Shown: piece after piece, positions 2,399 through 55,533 of the stretch
How positions within the stretch are numbered: the stretch's first letter is position 1
Layout: each line of letters starts with the position of its first letter
Source: Methanofollis formosanus
GTDB taxonomy: Archaea > Halobacteriota > Methanomicrobia > Methanomicrobiales > Methanofollaceae
Reading direction: 5' to 3'
Assembly (NCBI RefSeq): GCF_019633745.1
Contig: NZ_CP037968.1
Coordinates: forward strand, 62,001 to 126,000
DNA: 64,000 bases
Program-made: the position numbers and the translations under genes
Notes under the pieces: model-generated
Told to the model about the DNA's origin: nothing
Seen by the model: the letters and a program-made list of their open reading frames with translations, nothing else
The model's database searches: none

Positions 2399-2782
2399 GG
2401 CTCTGTAGAATTTTTCATGAGGCGAGCGCCCGCCTCAAGCGTACGTGATGAAAATATCATCTCAGAACTGGATTGATTCTTGACCCTCATCCTTCCTTTC
2501 AAGGAGCGAATCGGAGTCGAGCATCATGCCGCCCCCCTATCTTCGCTGGCCGCCTTATCAGGGGCCGAGCGTATTTTGCAGTCCGGGCAGGATGAAGCCG
2601 GTTCGCCGAACGTCGCGAGGTCGTGGAATCTATCGGGCCGTTCAGGGCCTGTGTGGGGGGGGAGGAGGTCGTTCGAGTCAGGGGCCTCCCGGTACGGTGA
2701 TCTATGCCTGGGCGGCCACACCGGAAATCGGCGCGATTCAGATGAACCGTGCGATATTTTGATCGCAAAAGTCTACAGAGCC
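2399..2782 (+). mobile_element. MITE-like composite repeat with 10-bp terminal inverted repeats
   Basis: The element begins GGCTCTGTAG (2399-2408) and ends CTACAGAGCC (2773-2782), a perfect inverted pair. The left end is a full A module: a TTTTTCAT/ATGAAAA outer stem and a GAGGCG/CGCCTC inner stem, ending at about 2460. A linker (2461-2525) that is also found at 42450 and 54540 follows, then the start of a B module (GCCGCCCCCCTATCTTCG). The rest has diverged. No coding sequence is supported inside. It fills most of the 524-bp gap between the kinase and methyltransferase genes. Confidence 0.75.
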
Positions 2783-33688: not shown

Positions 33689-34136
33689 GGCATTGTAGAA
33701 TTTTTCATGAGGGGAAAGCACGCCTCAAGCATACGTGATGAAAATATCATAGTGCAAGTCTCTGGGTGTGAGAGGATCCTTCTCCTCGTGACAGGGGAAC
33801 GGCCAGAAATCAAGCATCGTGCCGCCCCTCGGCTATCTTCGTCCGTGGGGGGTCCGGGGGGTGCAACCCCCCGGCGCGAGACGACAGGGAAGTTTCTGCA
33901 ATTGAGGGCGGCATGCCTGATCATTCCATCACACCTTCCCAAACATCGGTGCCGGGGGCGCTGCCCCCGGAACTCCCGGGATTGCAATTGAAGCGGGGAA
34001 GGCAGAGGAATGGCCGAGAAGGGTCTCGATCCGATTGATCGAGCACAGGATACTTCTGGAATATGCTTCATGGAAAAAATTTTTCATGCGGCATGCTTGA
34101 GGCGTGCGTTCGCTTCATGCCCGATTCAACAGAGCC
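33689..34136 (+). mobile_element. MITE-like composite repeat bounded by inverted A modules
   Basis: The left A module starts GGCATTGTAGAATTTTTCAT (33689) and the right one, inverted, ends ATTCAACAGAGCC (34124-34136). Between them lie a linker with GTGAGAGGATCC, a B module (about 33821-33921: GCCGCCCCTCGGCTATCTTCG to GAGGGCGGCATGCCTGATC) and a C module (about 33929-34011: CCTTCCCAAACATCG, GGGGGCGCTGCCCCC, GGGGAAGGC). The order A-B-C-A' is the fullest form of the family. No protein is supported. It abuts the methyltransferase stop at 34144. Confidence 0.72.
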
Positions 34137-51559: not shown

Positions 51560-51796
51560 TATTCTGACATCCTGAATCAACTCAAACCAGAAAAACCATC
51601 CTCTTTCTTCAGATCCGATTTTTACGACACTCCCCGGGAACTCCGCGGATGAACGACGATCAGTGAGCAAAGGCGATGATTTCGCCCACACACCATATTT
51701 AGTCAATTATTTTTATAATTCAAAGGATTAAGGATGAAATAAAAAGAGTTTTATTTATAAGGGACTACTTCAGGATGTATCCATTCCGGTGAAACC
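51560..51796 (+). promoter_or_regulatory. AT-rich leader and promoter of the exported deiminase gene
   Basis: TTTTATTTATAAGG around 51749-51762 is a good TATA candidate about 40 nt before the ATG at 51797. The region 51690-51760 is very AT-rich. No gene is visible. Confidence 0.45.
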
Positions 51797-53122
51797 ATGA
51801 GACACGACCAAACACGAATTATACGAGGGATTGGACTCCTCTTGGTGGTTGCATTGCTGATACCGTCAGGAAGCGCCCGTCTCGATCCCCCGAACCCGGA
51901 AGAGGCCGCAGATCCCCCCTCCTGGAGGTTCCCTGGCGAATTCGAGGAGCAGAGTGCGGTCTGGCTCGGATGGCTGACCAAGGAGTACATCCGCGGGTAT
52001 CATACCGACGACGTGATGGTGGAGATCGTCCAGGCCCTCCATCCGCATGTGCATCTCCGCATCTGTGTACCTGATGCGGCGCAGCAGGAACACGTGCTCG
52101 CCGTCCTTGCCGAACACAACATCCCGACCGAGAACATCTCATTCTACGAGAAGAATTTCACCATGCTCTACTGGCGCGACTTCGGCCCGATCTTCACGGT
52201 GAACGAGAAGGGGGAGAAGCGCATCGTCGATTGTGCATTCAACTGCTGGGGCTATTTCGCCCAGAGTGACGTCCAGTCGCGCATGATGGAGCGGATCGAC
52301 CGGGATGTGGCGGCCGACATGGGACTGGAGAGCGTCATGACGCGGCTGGTCAGCGAGGGGGGAGACCGCGAGTTCAATGGAAAAGGTACGCTGATCGTCA
52401 CCGAGTCCTGCGAGTTCCAGCGGAACCCGAACCTCGCGCGCGAAGAGATCGAAGACGAGTTCAAGCGTCTCTTCGGGGTACGCAATATCATCTGGCTGAA
52501 GCAGGGCCTCGTCGATGACGACCGCTACGACACGACGACTATTCCGGGCCCGAACGGCGTCGGCGTCGCCTACCGCACCGCCTCGGCCAACAACCACGTG
52601 GACGAGTATTGCCGCTTCGTCTCGCCCGACACCGTCCTGCTCGCCGAGGTGCCCGCGGAGGAGGCGGCAAACGATCCGGTGGCCGCCGAGAACCGGCGCC
52701 GGATGGAGGCGAACTACCAGATCCTGAAGAACGCCGTCGATCAGGACGGGAACCCGTTCAAGATCGTCCGCATGCCGGTGCCCGACATGGTCTACTTCAC
52801 CGCCACGCCCGAGGACGAGGCATATGCCAGTCTTGTGGCGTACGCGAACTATGCCGACGGCACGGCCTTCCCGTACGGCCGGCCCGTAACGGTCGTGCCC
52901 GCACAGAGTTACTGCAACTTCCTCATCTCCAACGGGGTTGTCCTCGGCCAGAAGTACTGGATGCCCGATATGGGGATGCCTGAGTCGCTCAAAAAGAAAG
53001 ACCAGGAGGCGGAACGCATTCTCCAGTCACTCTTCCCTGACCGCGAAGTGGTCATGATCAACACCATCCCGATCAATTTCGGCGGCGGGGGCATCCACTG
53101 CTCCACGCAACAGGAACCCTGA
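51797..53122 (+). CDS. exported agmatine deiminase/peptidylarginine deiminase-family enzyme
   Basis: A 441-residue guanidine-modifying enzyme of the PAD_porph family with a signal peptide at residues 8-27 (IGLLLVVALLIPSGSA). Catalytic elements are visible: the Asp of LYWRDFGPIF (near 134), the SEGGDREFNGKG substrate loop (near 192), His-Val-Asp in NNHVDEYCRF (near 265), and the nucleophile Cys in GGGGIHCSTQQEP (last 10 residues). Agmatine deiminases are usually cytoplasmic, so export is unusual. The substrate may be agmatine or peptidyl-arginine. Confidence 0.85.
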   Translation: MRHDQTRIIRGIGLLLVVALLIPSGSARLDPPNPEEAADPPSWRFPGEFEEQSAVWLGWLTKEYIRGYHTDDVMVEIVQALHPHVHLRICVPDAAQQEHVLAVLAEHNIPTENISFYEKNFTMLYWRDFGPIFTVNEKGEKRIVDCAFNCWGYFAQSDVQSRMMERIDRDVAADMGLESVMTRLVSEGGDREFNGKGTLIVTESCEFQRNPNLAREEIEDEFKRLFGVRNIIWLKQGLVDDDRYDTTTIPGPNGVGVAYRTASANNHVDEYCRFVSPDTVLLAEVPAEEAANDPVAAENRRRMEANYQILKNAVDQDGNPFKIVRMPVPDMVYFTATPEDEAYASLVAYANYADGTAFPYGRPVTVVPAQSYCNFLISNGVVLGQKYWMPDMGMPESLKKKDQEAERILQSLFPDREVVMINTIPINFGGGGIHCSTQQEP

Positions 53123-53154
53123 GGGTTCCTCTCTTTTCTGTGGTGAGCGTGAAC

Positions 53155-53765
53155 ACCACTCTATCGCTGCCCCTCGGCTATCTTCATCCGTGGGGGGTCC
53201 GGGGGGCACTCGCCCCCCCGGCGCGAGGCAGCGGTGACGATCCTGTGATAGGGGCGGCATATCCGATCATCACGCTCGCACCACGAGAAGAGGATGATTT
53301 ACCATGAAACGGGATGAGGCAAGAGCCTCATGTTGAACCAATGAAAACCGACACATTGAATCCTATTCCAGATTTCAATGGGGTTTTCAGGGAAAAATGA
53401 TCCAGACGTTCAATTCTGGAGTTATGGATGAGAATTCGAAGACACAAATTTCCCTCATACCCGATATACGGAGAACAAAACCACCCTCAGAACGATCAGG
53501 CGCTCAGCATTCACGGCCCTATTGTCATCCTGGGAGTCCGGGGGCAGAGCCCCCGGCACGAGGGTATTTGAAGGCGCGATGATCAGGCGTGCCGCCCTCA
53601 TCGCACGATCTTTCCTGCCGTCTCGCGAGAAGATAGCCGAGGGGCGGCGATGGAGCGAGGCCCCCAATGATTCTCCTGTCTGAATATGGGAGATCAAGCG
53701 ACGAGCAATTTTCATCCCGCATGCTTGAGGCGTGCTTTCGCCCAATGCCCAATTCTACAGAGCCT
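53155..53765. repeat. composite dispersed repeat cluster (B, C, inverted B, inverted A)
   Basis: A B module in plus orientation spans about 53165-53255 (CGGCTATCTTCATCC, GCCCCCCCGGCGCGAGG). A C-like stem is at 53520-53572 (GGGGGCAGAGCCCCCGG). An inverted B runs from about 53575 to 53655 (GGCGTGCCGCCCTCATCG to AGATAGCCGAGGGGCGGC). An inverted A module ends AATTCTACAGAGCC (53752-53765). No plus-oriented partner A is found, so one end is lost. No gene is supported in 53123-53777. Confidence 0.6.
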
Positions 53766-54334: not shown

Positions 54335-54481
54335 GTTTTTCTTGCTCCGGCATCATCGGCGGTTTCCTGCGCTTGTGGGGGATTGATCTGGGCATTCATC
54401 ACCAAGAATAGATCGATTGAAATATTTAGCCATTCTGTGCGAATTCTCTGCAGGTCGGGGGAGTGAGGATGATGAAAGATC

Positions 54482-55424
54482 GGCTCTGTAGAATTTTTCA
54501 TGAGGCGAGCGCTCGCCTCAACATACGGGATGAAAATATCAGATCAGATCTGGATCGGTTCTTGACCCCCACCCTTACGAACGAGGAGCGAATCGAAGTC
54601 GAACATCATGCCGACCCGCGGCTATCTTCGTCGTGGGGGTCCGGGGGTTTCCCCCGGCGCGAGATGGCAGGGGAATCTCGACGATAGGGGGCGGCCGATC
54701 ACGCTGAAGAATTTTCGATCCTCCGCGTATCGATTTCAACGGGATCTGGCGAGTTCAAACACTCATACAAACCTGAAGAGATGATCAGGATCATTTTCAT
54801 GGAGATCATCCCAAAACTTCTCTGGCCTTGATAGGTGAGTAAAAGAAGTTTCTGAAGCACGGTATCTTTCAAGAGATTGTTGCCGCCCCACTCCTATCTT
54901 CGTCGTGGGGGGGTCCGGGGGGTCTCCCCCCGGCAGGAAAGAGCAAGGAAACATCCTTTATGCTTTCTGTGGGCGGCACCTCTGATCGGTCTGCCTTCCT
55001 TCGTCACTCTCGCCGGGGGCGTTGCCTCTGGATAGCAATTGAAGCAGAGAAGGCAGATGAACGGCCGAAAAGAGTCTTGATCCAGATGATGGATCGAACT
55101 CTGGATACTTTTGGGATATGCTCATGCTAAACCCTCACTTCTCCTGGTTCGAGTATGATTGAACTGCCTTCCCCCATGCTCCCGCAGGGGGCAGGGCCCC
55201 CGGTACAAGGGTGGAGGAAGGCGTGATGATCGATCATGCGGGCCGCCCGCATCGGAGAACTGTCCTGCCATCTCGCGAGAGGATGGGCGGGGGCGGCAAC
55301 GAAGTGGTAGTCCTATGGTGTGTCCTGTGCTCCGAAGAGGAGCAAGGATCCACTCACCAGAGACCGCCAGGAATTTTCACCCCGTATGCTTGAACCCAAA
55401 GTTCATGCCTGATTCTACAGAGCC
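54482..55424 (+). mobile_element. 943-bp composite mobile element with terminal inverted repeats and 7-bp target duplication
   Basis: The ends are GGCTCTGTAG (54482-54491) and CTACAGAGCC (55415-55424). AAAGATC occurs immediately outside both ends (54475-54481 and 55425-55431), a direct target-site duplication. Inside are A, the AGATCAGATCTGG linker, B (54605-54700), a second B (54882-54980), C (54990-55055), another C (55166-55222), an inverted B (55225-55298), the GGATCC/GGAGC hairpin linker and an inverted A. No transposase is encoded. It looks like a nested array that moved as one unit. Confidence 0.78.
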
Positions 55425-55533
55425 AAAGATCGAGACAGGAACTTTGTTGGAAAAACTCCAGGCTGATCATTATAGAGGGAGTGAAGATCTCGGCAAGAGA
55501 TCATGAGAAGGCAATGAATCCGCCACTTCCCCC

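What the first reader, a model, noticed from the sequence alone, without database searches (positions are those of the whole stretch)
54475..55431. A 943-bp mosaic repeat moved as a unit: inverted ends plus a 7-bp target duplication
GGCTCTGTAG at 54482 and CTACAGAGCC at 55415-55424 are perfect inverted ends, and AAAGATC flanks both sides directly (54475-54481, 55425-55431). Inverted ends and a short target duplication are standard marks of DNA transposition. No transposase lies inside; the interior is built from A, B and C modules. This suggests a non-autonomous element mobilised by an enzyme encoded elsewhere.
Basis: partly seen in the sequence, partly recalled or inferred. Interest (0 to 1): 0.82.

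Follow-up and report, generated by a model that had tools for sequence, protein, structure and literature searches.

The report
Three mobile elements nested in one
This 943-base stretch of a methanogen genome is a small gene-less transposon whose end was invaded by a second gene-less element (apparently steered by a guide RNA) and then by a third, and intact or relic copies of the enzyme genes that would move each of the three were found.

Summary
The 13-bp inverted ends and the AAAGATC repeats are there, and a sister species has the precise empty site (89% identity across it). The element is one of many: 102 exact GGCTCTGTAGAA ends in the genome, 0 in the reversed control. The enzyme "encoded elsewhere" exists: an intact 1008-bp IS5-family IS with the same ends and an 8-bp duplication. 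The family's duplication is 8 bp, so the 7-bp one here has probably lost one base.
The "mosaic" is nested insertion. (1) The host is a 306-bp IS5-type MITE. (2) U, about 312 bp, sits exactly between GTAG and AA of the host's left inverted repeat; deleting U from a sister copy gives a known 241-bp MITE (237/241 identical, gapless). U's ends match an IS110-family IS, intact in another genus and a relic here. Its non-coding left end has two guide loops, one matching U's right end and one the host repeat. Across ten relatives the loops track each element's own target and donor (permutation p 5e-5 each). (3) B, 322 bp, is a MITE of a second IS5-type IS (ATG duplication), inserted independently at a hot spot in U.
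Transposition and a separate enzyme are supported; A-B-C moving as one ready-made unit is not.

The parts
54474..54481 (.). Left copy of target duplication; GAAAGATC if 8 bp, AAAGATC (54475-54481) if 7 bp
   Evidence: Sequence; single copy at the empty site in G001: ATGATGAAAGACAGG; 8-bp norm in the family
54482..54491 (+). Tip of the host MITE's left terminal inverted repeat, GGCTCTGTAG
   Evidence: shared exactly with the autonomous IS5-family IS
54492..54801 (+). U element (IS110-type MITE), left end AATTTTTCATGAGGCGAGCGCTCGCCTCAA... up to its B-split right end GGATCATTTTCATG; U resumes at 55127-55128.
   Evidence: Insertion between GTAG and AA shown by removal test on sister copies; ends match intact IS110 in L195
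54799..54801 (.). ATG, left copy of B's 3-bp target duplication
54802..55123 (+). B element: 322-bp MITE, ends GAGATCATCCCAAAAC / GAGCATATCCCAAAAG (reverse strand), inserted in U's right end
   Evidence: same ends as the 870-bp two-ORF IS5-type IS at genome 1048108-1048977 and 1547101-1547970
55124..55126 (.). ATG, right copy of B's target duplication
55127..55128 (+). Last two bases of U (CT; GT in most copies)
   Evidence: consensus CATGGT|AA
55129..55424 (+). Body and right end of the host MITE (module C), AAACCCTCAC...; removing U and B gives a 306-bp MITE with both inverted repeats
   Evidence: aligns with the C-type monomer at genome 162731-162959
55383..55414 (-). U-type left end (AATCAGGCATGAACTTTGGGTTCAAGCATACG) in reverse, next to the right inverted-repeat tip: a second, partial U
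55415..55424 (-). Tip of the right terminal inverted repeat, CTACAGAGCC
55425..55431 (.). Right copy of target duplication, AAAGATC

Best explanation
The 943 bp are three nested non-autonomous elements. (1) A 306-bp IS5-type MITE with 13-bp GGCTCTGTAGAAT inverted repeats was inserted by the DDE transposase of a resident IS5-family IS. It duplicated about 8 bp (now 7) at a site that is empty in the closest relative. (2) U, an IS110-type MITE, was recombined without target duplication between GTAG and AA of the host's left inverted repeat. Its movers would be an IS110 DEDD recombinase and the LE-encoded bridge RNA, acting in trans. The RNA's target loop (UGUAGAA) reads the inverted repeat and its donor loop (AUGGUAA) reads U's right end, with core dinucleotide AA. 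Because U itself begins AAT, the host repeat GGCTCTGTAG+AAT is restored, so the IS5-type transposase can still move host plus U. (3) B, a MITE of a second IS5-type IS, then inserted at CATG in U's right end with an ATG duplication. Shown by sequence: the empty site, the shared ends, the exact insertion junctions, the independent B insertions and the guide/target matching in relatives. Inferred: enzymatic activity, trans action of the bridge RNA, whether host and U arrived together, and present-day mobility.
For: Empty site in G001 over the joined flanks, 89% identity, one copy of the target. Autonomous IS 642014-643021: 305-aa IS5 transposase (PF01609 E 2.6e-21; NF033579 237 bits, cut-off 140), same ends over 13-14 bp, TSD GAACAATC. 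Eight of nine homologues in other methanogens with a readable end keep an exact GGCTCTGTAGAA end (six of these at both ends), the ninth has one mismatch, and two have perfect 8-bp TSDs. U: composite 2090690 minus U = 241 bp, 237/241 identical to S monomer 2010722; four more composites behave alike. 85 exact U right ends genome-wide, 0 in control, nearly all followed by GTAA plus the start of another unit or by a B-type end. Inverted-repeat tip outside U matches the tip native to the host end it abuts (p 0.011). Intact IS110 in G065 with U's left end after GGCTCTGTTG and U's right end TTTTTCATGGT before AAACCCT. G000 IS110 relic with matching guides. Loops covary with own target and donor, p 5e-5 each. 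B: ATG duplication; A and B have different closest relatives in other A-B loci.
Against: The outer duplication is 7 bp, not the family's 8 bp. The intact IS110 is in another genus at a contig end; G000 has only a relic, and no bridge RNA has been measured. Loop windows were placed by hand from the aligned non-coding regions, and one relative (L200) matches poorly. The host MITE shares only its inverted repeats with the IS, not interior sequence.
Confidence: 0.85

Rival explanations
1. A single IS5-type MITE family whose internal arms were shuffled by ordinary recombination (mosaic), with no second mobile element at the A/C junction.
For: Arms do recombine at a G+C-rich core shared by many units (e.g. 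composite 500871 joins a U left half to an S right half).
Against: All junctions at U's right end fall on the same base. Deleting U restores an intact known MITE without a gap. An IS110 element with U's two ends exists.
Confidence: 0.08
2. A-B-C was assembled once and transposed as one unit.
For: Outer inverted repeats and duplication enclose all three; two other loci share an A-B junction.
Against: No second A-B-C copy exists in the genome. B at 572304 is closest to a B outside A (95.5%), while its A is 98.2% identical to an A without B; B at 582712 is 97.6% identical to a free B. B also sits at the same site in opposite orientation. Whether this particular B entered before or after the last jump of the host is not resolved.
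Confidence: 0.12
3. U is an IS200/IS605-type (Y1, HUH) or REP-like element: insertion 3' of GTAG, no duplication, subterminal hairpin.
For: GTAG precedes U and a hairpin lies near its left end.
Against: No Y1 transposase gene in this genome; those in relatives have unrelated ends. U's ends match an IS110 element instead.
Confidence: 0.03
4. Chance inverted repeat or a functional RNA/regulatory repeat rather than a mobile element.
For: Stable hairpins in several units.
Against: 102 ends against 0 in control, 8-bp duplications, an empty site, and no Rfam match.
Confidence: 0.01

Closest known systems
IS5-family MITEs of archaea and bacteria (archaeal MITE surveys, PMC3852290)
   Same: Short, no transposase, inverted repeats shared with a resident IS, target duplication; similarity to the partner IS confined mainly to the ends, as that survey reports for prokaryotic MITEs
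   Different: Most copies carry a second element inside the inverted repeat itself; several interchangeable internal arms
IS4321 and IS5075 (IS1111 group of IS110 family) inserting into Tn21-family terminal inverted repeats (Partridge and Hall 2003, cited in PMC11208160)
   Same: An IS110-family element that targets the inverted repeat of another transposon
   Different: Here the targets are MITEs of an IS5-type IS in a methanogen; the invader is mostly a non-autonomous MITE, in dozens of copies; it is IS110-group (RNA region at the left end); and it restores the host repeat (GGCTCTGTAG+AAT)
IS621 / IS110 bridge RNA systems (PMC11208160)
   Same: DEDD recombinase, non-coding RNA region in a long left end, two loops matching target and donor, shared core dinucleotide, no target duplication
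   Different: Core AA rather than CT; target is a repeat family; guidance would have to act in trans on MITEs that lack the RNA
BOX elements of Streptococcus pneumoniae (PMC3049150)
   Same: Modular intergenic repeats with inverted ends and target duplications, proposed to be moved by a resident IS; repeats inserted into one another
   Different: Modules here are identifiable as separate mobile elements with their own enzymes; module content is unrelated

Membership tests
IS5-family MITE (host and outer unit) | Terminal inverted repeats shared with an autonomous IS of the family | tested here: met
   14/13 bp exact with IS 642014-643021; homologues in other methanogens have GGCTCTGTAGAA ends
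IS5-family MITE (host and outer unit) | Target duplication of the same length as the partner IS (8 bp) | tested here: inconclusive
   7 bp exact here; 8 bp in 22 other pairs and in the IS
IS5-family MITE (host and outer unit) | No transposase gene, below 1 kb | tested here: met
   943 bp, no Pfam match in inner ORFs
IS5-family MITE (host and outer unit) | Insertion shown by an empty orthologous site | tested here: met
   G001
IS5-family MITE (host and outer unit) | Interior derived from the IS by deletion | tested here: not met
   Only the inverted repeats match; this is a common but not a defining feature of prokaryotic MITEs
IS110 family (U) | Ends shared with an element encoding a DEDD_Tnp_IS110 / Transposase_20 recombinase | tested here: met
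   L195, PF01548 and PF02371; relic in G000
IS110 family (U) | No target duplication beyond a shared core dinucleotide | tested here: met
   GTAG|AA...CATGGT|AA junctions, exact removal
IS110 family (U) | Bridge RNA with target and donor loops matching target and donor | tested here: met
   For the autonomous relatives and the G000 relic, by sequence only; U itself was not seen to carry the RNA region. Expression not testable here
IS110 group versus IS1111 group (U's partner) | Long left end holding the RNA, short right end | tested here: met
   G065 copy: left end 218 nt, about 30 nt after the stop codon
IS200/IS605 (considered for U) | Y1 transposase partner with the same ends | tested here: not met
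   None in G000; unrelated ends in relatives
IS5-family MITE (B) | Ends and duplication length shared with an autonomous IS | tested here: met
   17 and 13 bp exact with the 870-bp IS; 3-bp duplications ATG and TCT for the IS, ATG for B

The most novel reading that the evidence does not exclude
A bridge-RNA-guided IS110 element evolved a target loop that reads the terminal inverted repeat of an abundant IS5-type MITE family. It spawned its own MITEs, which fill those repeats (about 85 right ends with an exact motif) while restoring them. Two unrelated transposition systems thus share one composite element, and the RNA acts in trans on non-autonomous copies.
Probability: 0.7. Interest if true: 0.75.

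Novelty: new variant of a known kind. Interest (0 to 1): 0.62.

Why it matters
It turns an odd mosaic repeat into a readable stack of three transposons with identified partner enzymes. It also gives a natural, high-copy case of apparent RNA-guided insertion into another transposon's ends. If the guide acts in trans on short copies that lack it, IS110-type elements have a MITE lifestyle that, as far as I know, has not been described (my library searches found none, but they were limited). It also offers a second set of natural guide/target/donor triplets, with core AA, from methanogens.

Tried and rejected
Rfam gave nothing. Y1/IS605 as U's driver was rejected. A deletion-derived origin from the IS was rejected (only ends match). 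A 'tandem MITE dimer with deleted palindrome' model for the A/C junction was dropped once removal of U restored a known monomer. Single-strand folding of U's ends was mixed: two of four sequences folded better than shuffles. Paper searches for MITEs in Methanomicrobiales, for the end sequence and for IS110 MITEs found no prior description. The organism could not be named: genome handles are anonymous.

Full report
1. Observation. In the whole genome (2,965,921 bp, one contig; window = 62001-126000) GGCTCTGTAGAA occurs 102 times, the reversed control 0. Among 87 convergent end pairs, 22 have an exact 8-bp and 2 an exact 7-bp flanking repeat; random pairing of the same ends gave 10 (8 bp) and 9 (7 bp) in 11,847. 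The 8-bp targets are A+T-rich inside with G, C or A often at the first position. The left flank of the finding reads GAAAGATC and the right AAAGATCG, so an 8-bp duplication that lost one G is likely; a true 7-bp duplication cannot be excluded.

2. Empty site. The joined flanks match one stretch of the closest relative (G001) from end to end, 850/960 identical, with one copy of the target (ATGATGAAAGACAGG).

3. The enzyme. A 1008-bp element at 642014-643021 has GGCTCTGTAGAATT... and ...TTCTACAGGGCC ends, an 8-bp duplication GAACAATC, and one 305-aa ORF. The ORF matches DDE_Tnp_1 and NCBIfam IS5 family model NF033579 above the cut-off. Of the nine homologues from Methanoregula, Methanolobus and other MAGs with a readable end, eight keep an exact GGCTCTGTAGAA end (six of these at both ends), the ninth (L138) has one mismatch, and two (L132, L135) have perfect 8-bp duplications. 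Between this IS and the finding only the ends match (14 and 13 bp). Broken copies lie in G001 and G002, the G002 one still flanked by CGAAAATC twice. G006 and G007 hold 265 and 356 exact ends but no detectable NF033579 match, so the MITEs seem to have outlived the enzyme there; G007 is only 81% complete.

4. B is a separate element. It has its own asymmetric ends (GAGRTCATCCCAAAAC, GAGCATATCCCAAAAG) and an ATG duplication. An 870-bp IS with the same ends and a two-ORF IS5-type transposase is at 1048108-1048977 (ATG duplication) and 1547101-1547970 (TCT). B-type ends occupy the same point, CATG of U's right end, at about ten of 85 exact right ends in the genome, in both orientations. A and B do not share history: A at 571976 is 98.2% identical to an A without B, while its B is 95.5% identical to a B elsewhere; B at 582712 is 97.6% identical to a free B. 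So the A-B association arises by repeated insertion at a hot spot.

5. The A/C junction. A (here U) ends in GGATCATTTTCATGGT and is followed in nearly all of its 85 exact genome copies by AA plus the start of another unit, or by B. In the stretches read, no U right end carries an inverted-repeat tip. Every U left end used in the test follows GGCNNTGTAG. Cutting U out of composite 2090690 leaves 241 bp that match the free monomer 2010722 at 237 of 241 positions without a gap; four other composites give 239-245 bp likewise. The repeat tip left outside U is the one native to the host end that U abuts (GGCTTTG for one end, GGCTCTG for the other; Fisher p 0.011; a need for unlike ends could produce the same pattern). 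U was therefore inserted between GTAG and AA of the host's inverted repeat. Repeated insertion at the same point explains chains such as U-U-S. For the finding, removing U and B leaves a 306-bp MITE with both inverted repeats, akin to the monomer at 162731. Its right end is a second U-type left end in reverse (55383-55414).

6. U's partner. No Y1 transposase exists in this genome. An IS110 DEDD pseudogene lies at 648739-648999, joined to a U-type left end that sits in GGCCCTGTAG|AA. In G065, another genus and family of the same order, an intact IS110 (415-425 aa, PF01548 and PF02371) begins AATCGGGCATGAATGTGGATTCAAGCATACCTGATGAAAAA after GGCTCTGTTG and ends GGATCAGTTTTTCATGGT before AAACCCT. 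These are U's ends in the same kind of target; the contig stops seven bases after the right junction.

7. Guide loops. Published bridge RNAs of the IS110 group lie in the left end; the left target guide has the sequence of the left target plus core, and the left donor guide that of the left donor (element right end) plus core (PMC11208160). The left ends aligned here contain, after a GGGATC..ATCCC hairpin, TGTAGAATC in one G000 copy (target CTGTAG|AA) and TGTTGAATC in G065 (target CTGTTG|AA), then ATGGTAAA (right end CATGGT|AA) in all three. The other G000 copy reads TGTAAAATC. In ten relatives the donor loop shares on average 8.1 nt with the element's own right end against 4.3 with others' ends, and the target loop 7.3 against 4.3 with the left junctions; no permutation in 20,000 reached the observed sum. 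Windows were set by hand from aligned positions and L200 is a weak case. For G000 the right end used was that of U, since the relic has lost its own; that match ties U to this RNA.

8. Mechanism. Because U begins AAT, GGCTCTGTAG|AAT regenerates the 13-bp host repeat, which explains why the composite still looks like, and probably still moves as, an IS5-type MITE. Shown: junctions, empty site, shared ends, covariation. Inferred: activity, trans guidance, order of the host and U insertions here.

9. Standing. The outer element is a new member of a known kind. The combination with an IS110-type MITE aimed at its inverted repeats is a new variant, closest to IS4321/IS5075 in Tn21-family repeats.

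Noticed in passing
window 51560-53764: G001 lacks the gene at 51797-53122 (PAD_porph family, PF04371) together with the repeat ending at 53764; alignment resumes exactly at the GGCTCTGTAGAAT end. No left partner end was found.
   Followed up: partly
window 2399-2782, 33689-34136, 42389 and 53752-53764: Further members or single ends of the same MITE family in the window.
   Followed up: partly
L195-L207 (non-coding region upstream of the IS110 gene): A clade of methanogen IS110 elements with readable guide loops and core AA; target loops differ between elements.
   Followed up: partly
G006 and G007 (same genus): 265 and 356 exact GGCTCTGTAGAA ends but no detectable IS5 transposase of this model.
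   Followed up: no
G000:C1:2308225-2309287 (L126): A second IS5-family transposase (70% identical) between GGCTCTGTTGAA ends, without a matching 8-bp duplication.
   Followed up: no
G000:C1:648304-648600 (L068:3405-3712): Two mini-U elements of roughly 80-90 bp that keep only U's left end and right end, suggesting the minimum length for U.
   Followed up: no
G000:C1:882623-882686: A 64-bp pair of inverted repeats holding little more than a U-type left end.
   Followed up: no
units across the genome: A G+C-rich core (GGGGGTCCGGGGG...CCCCCGG) is shared by the U, S and C units, with related sequence in B, and looks like a point of recombination between them.
   Followed up: partly
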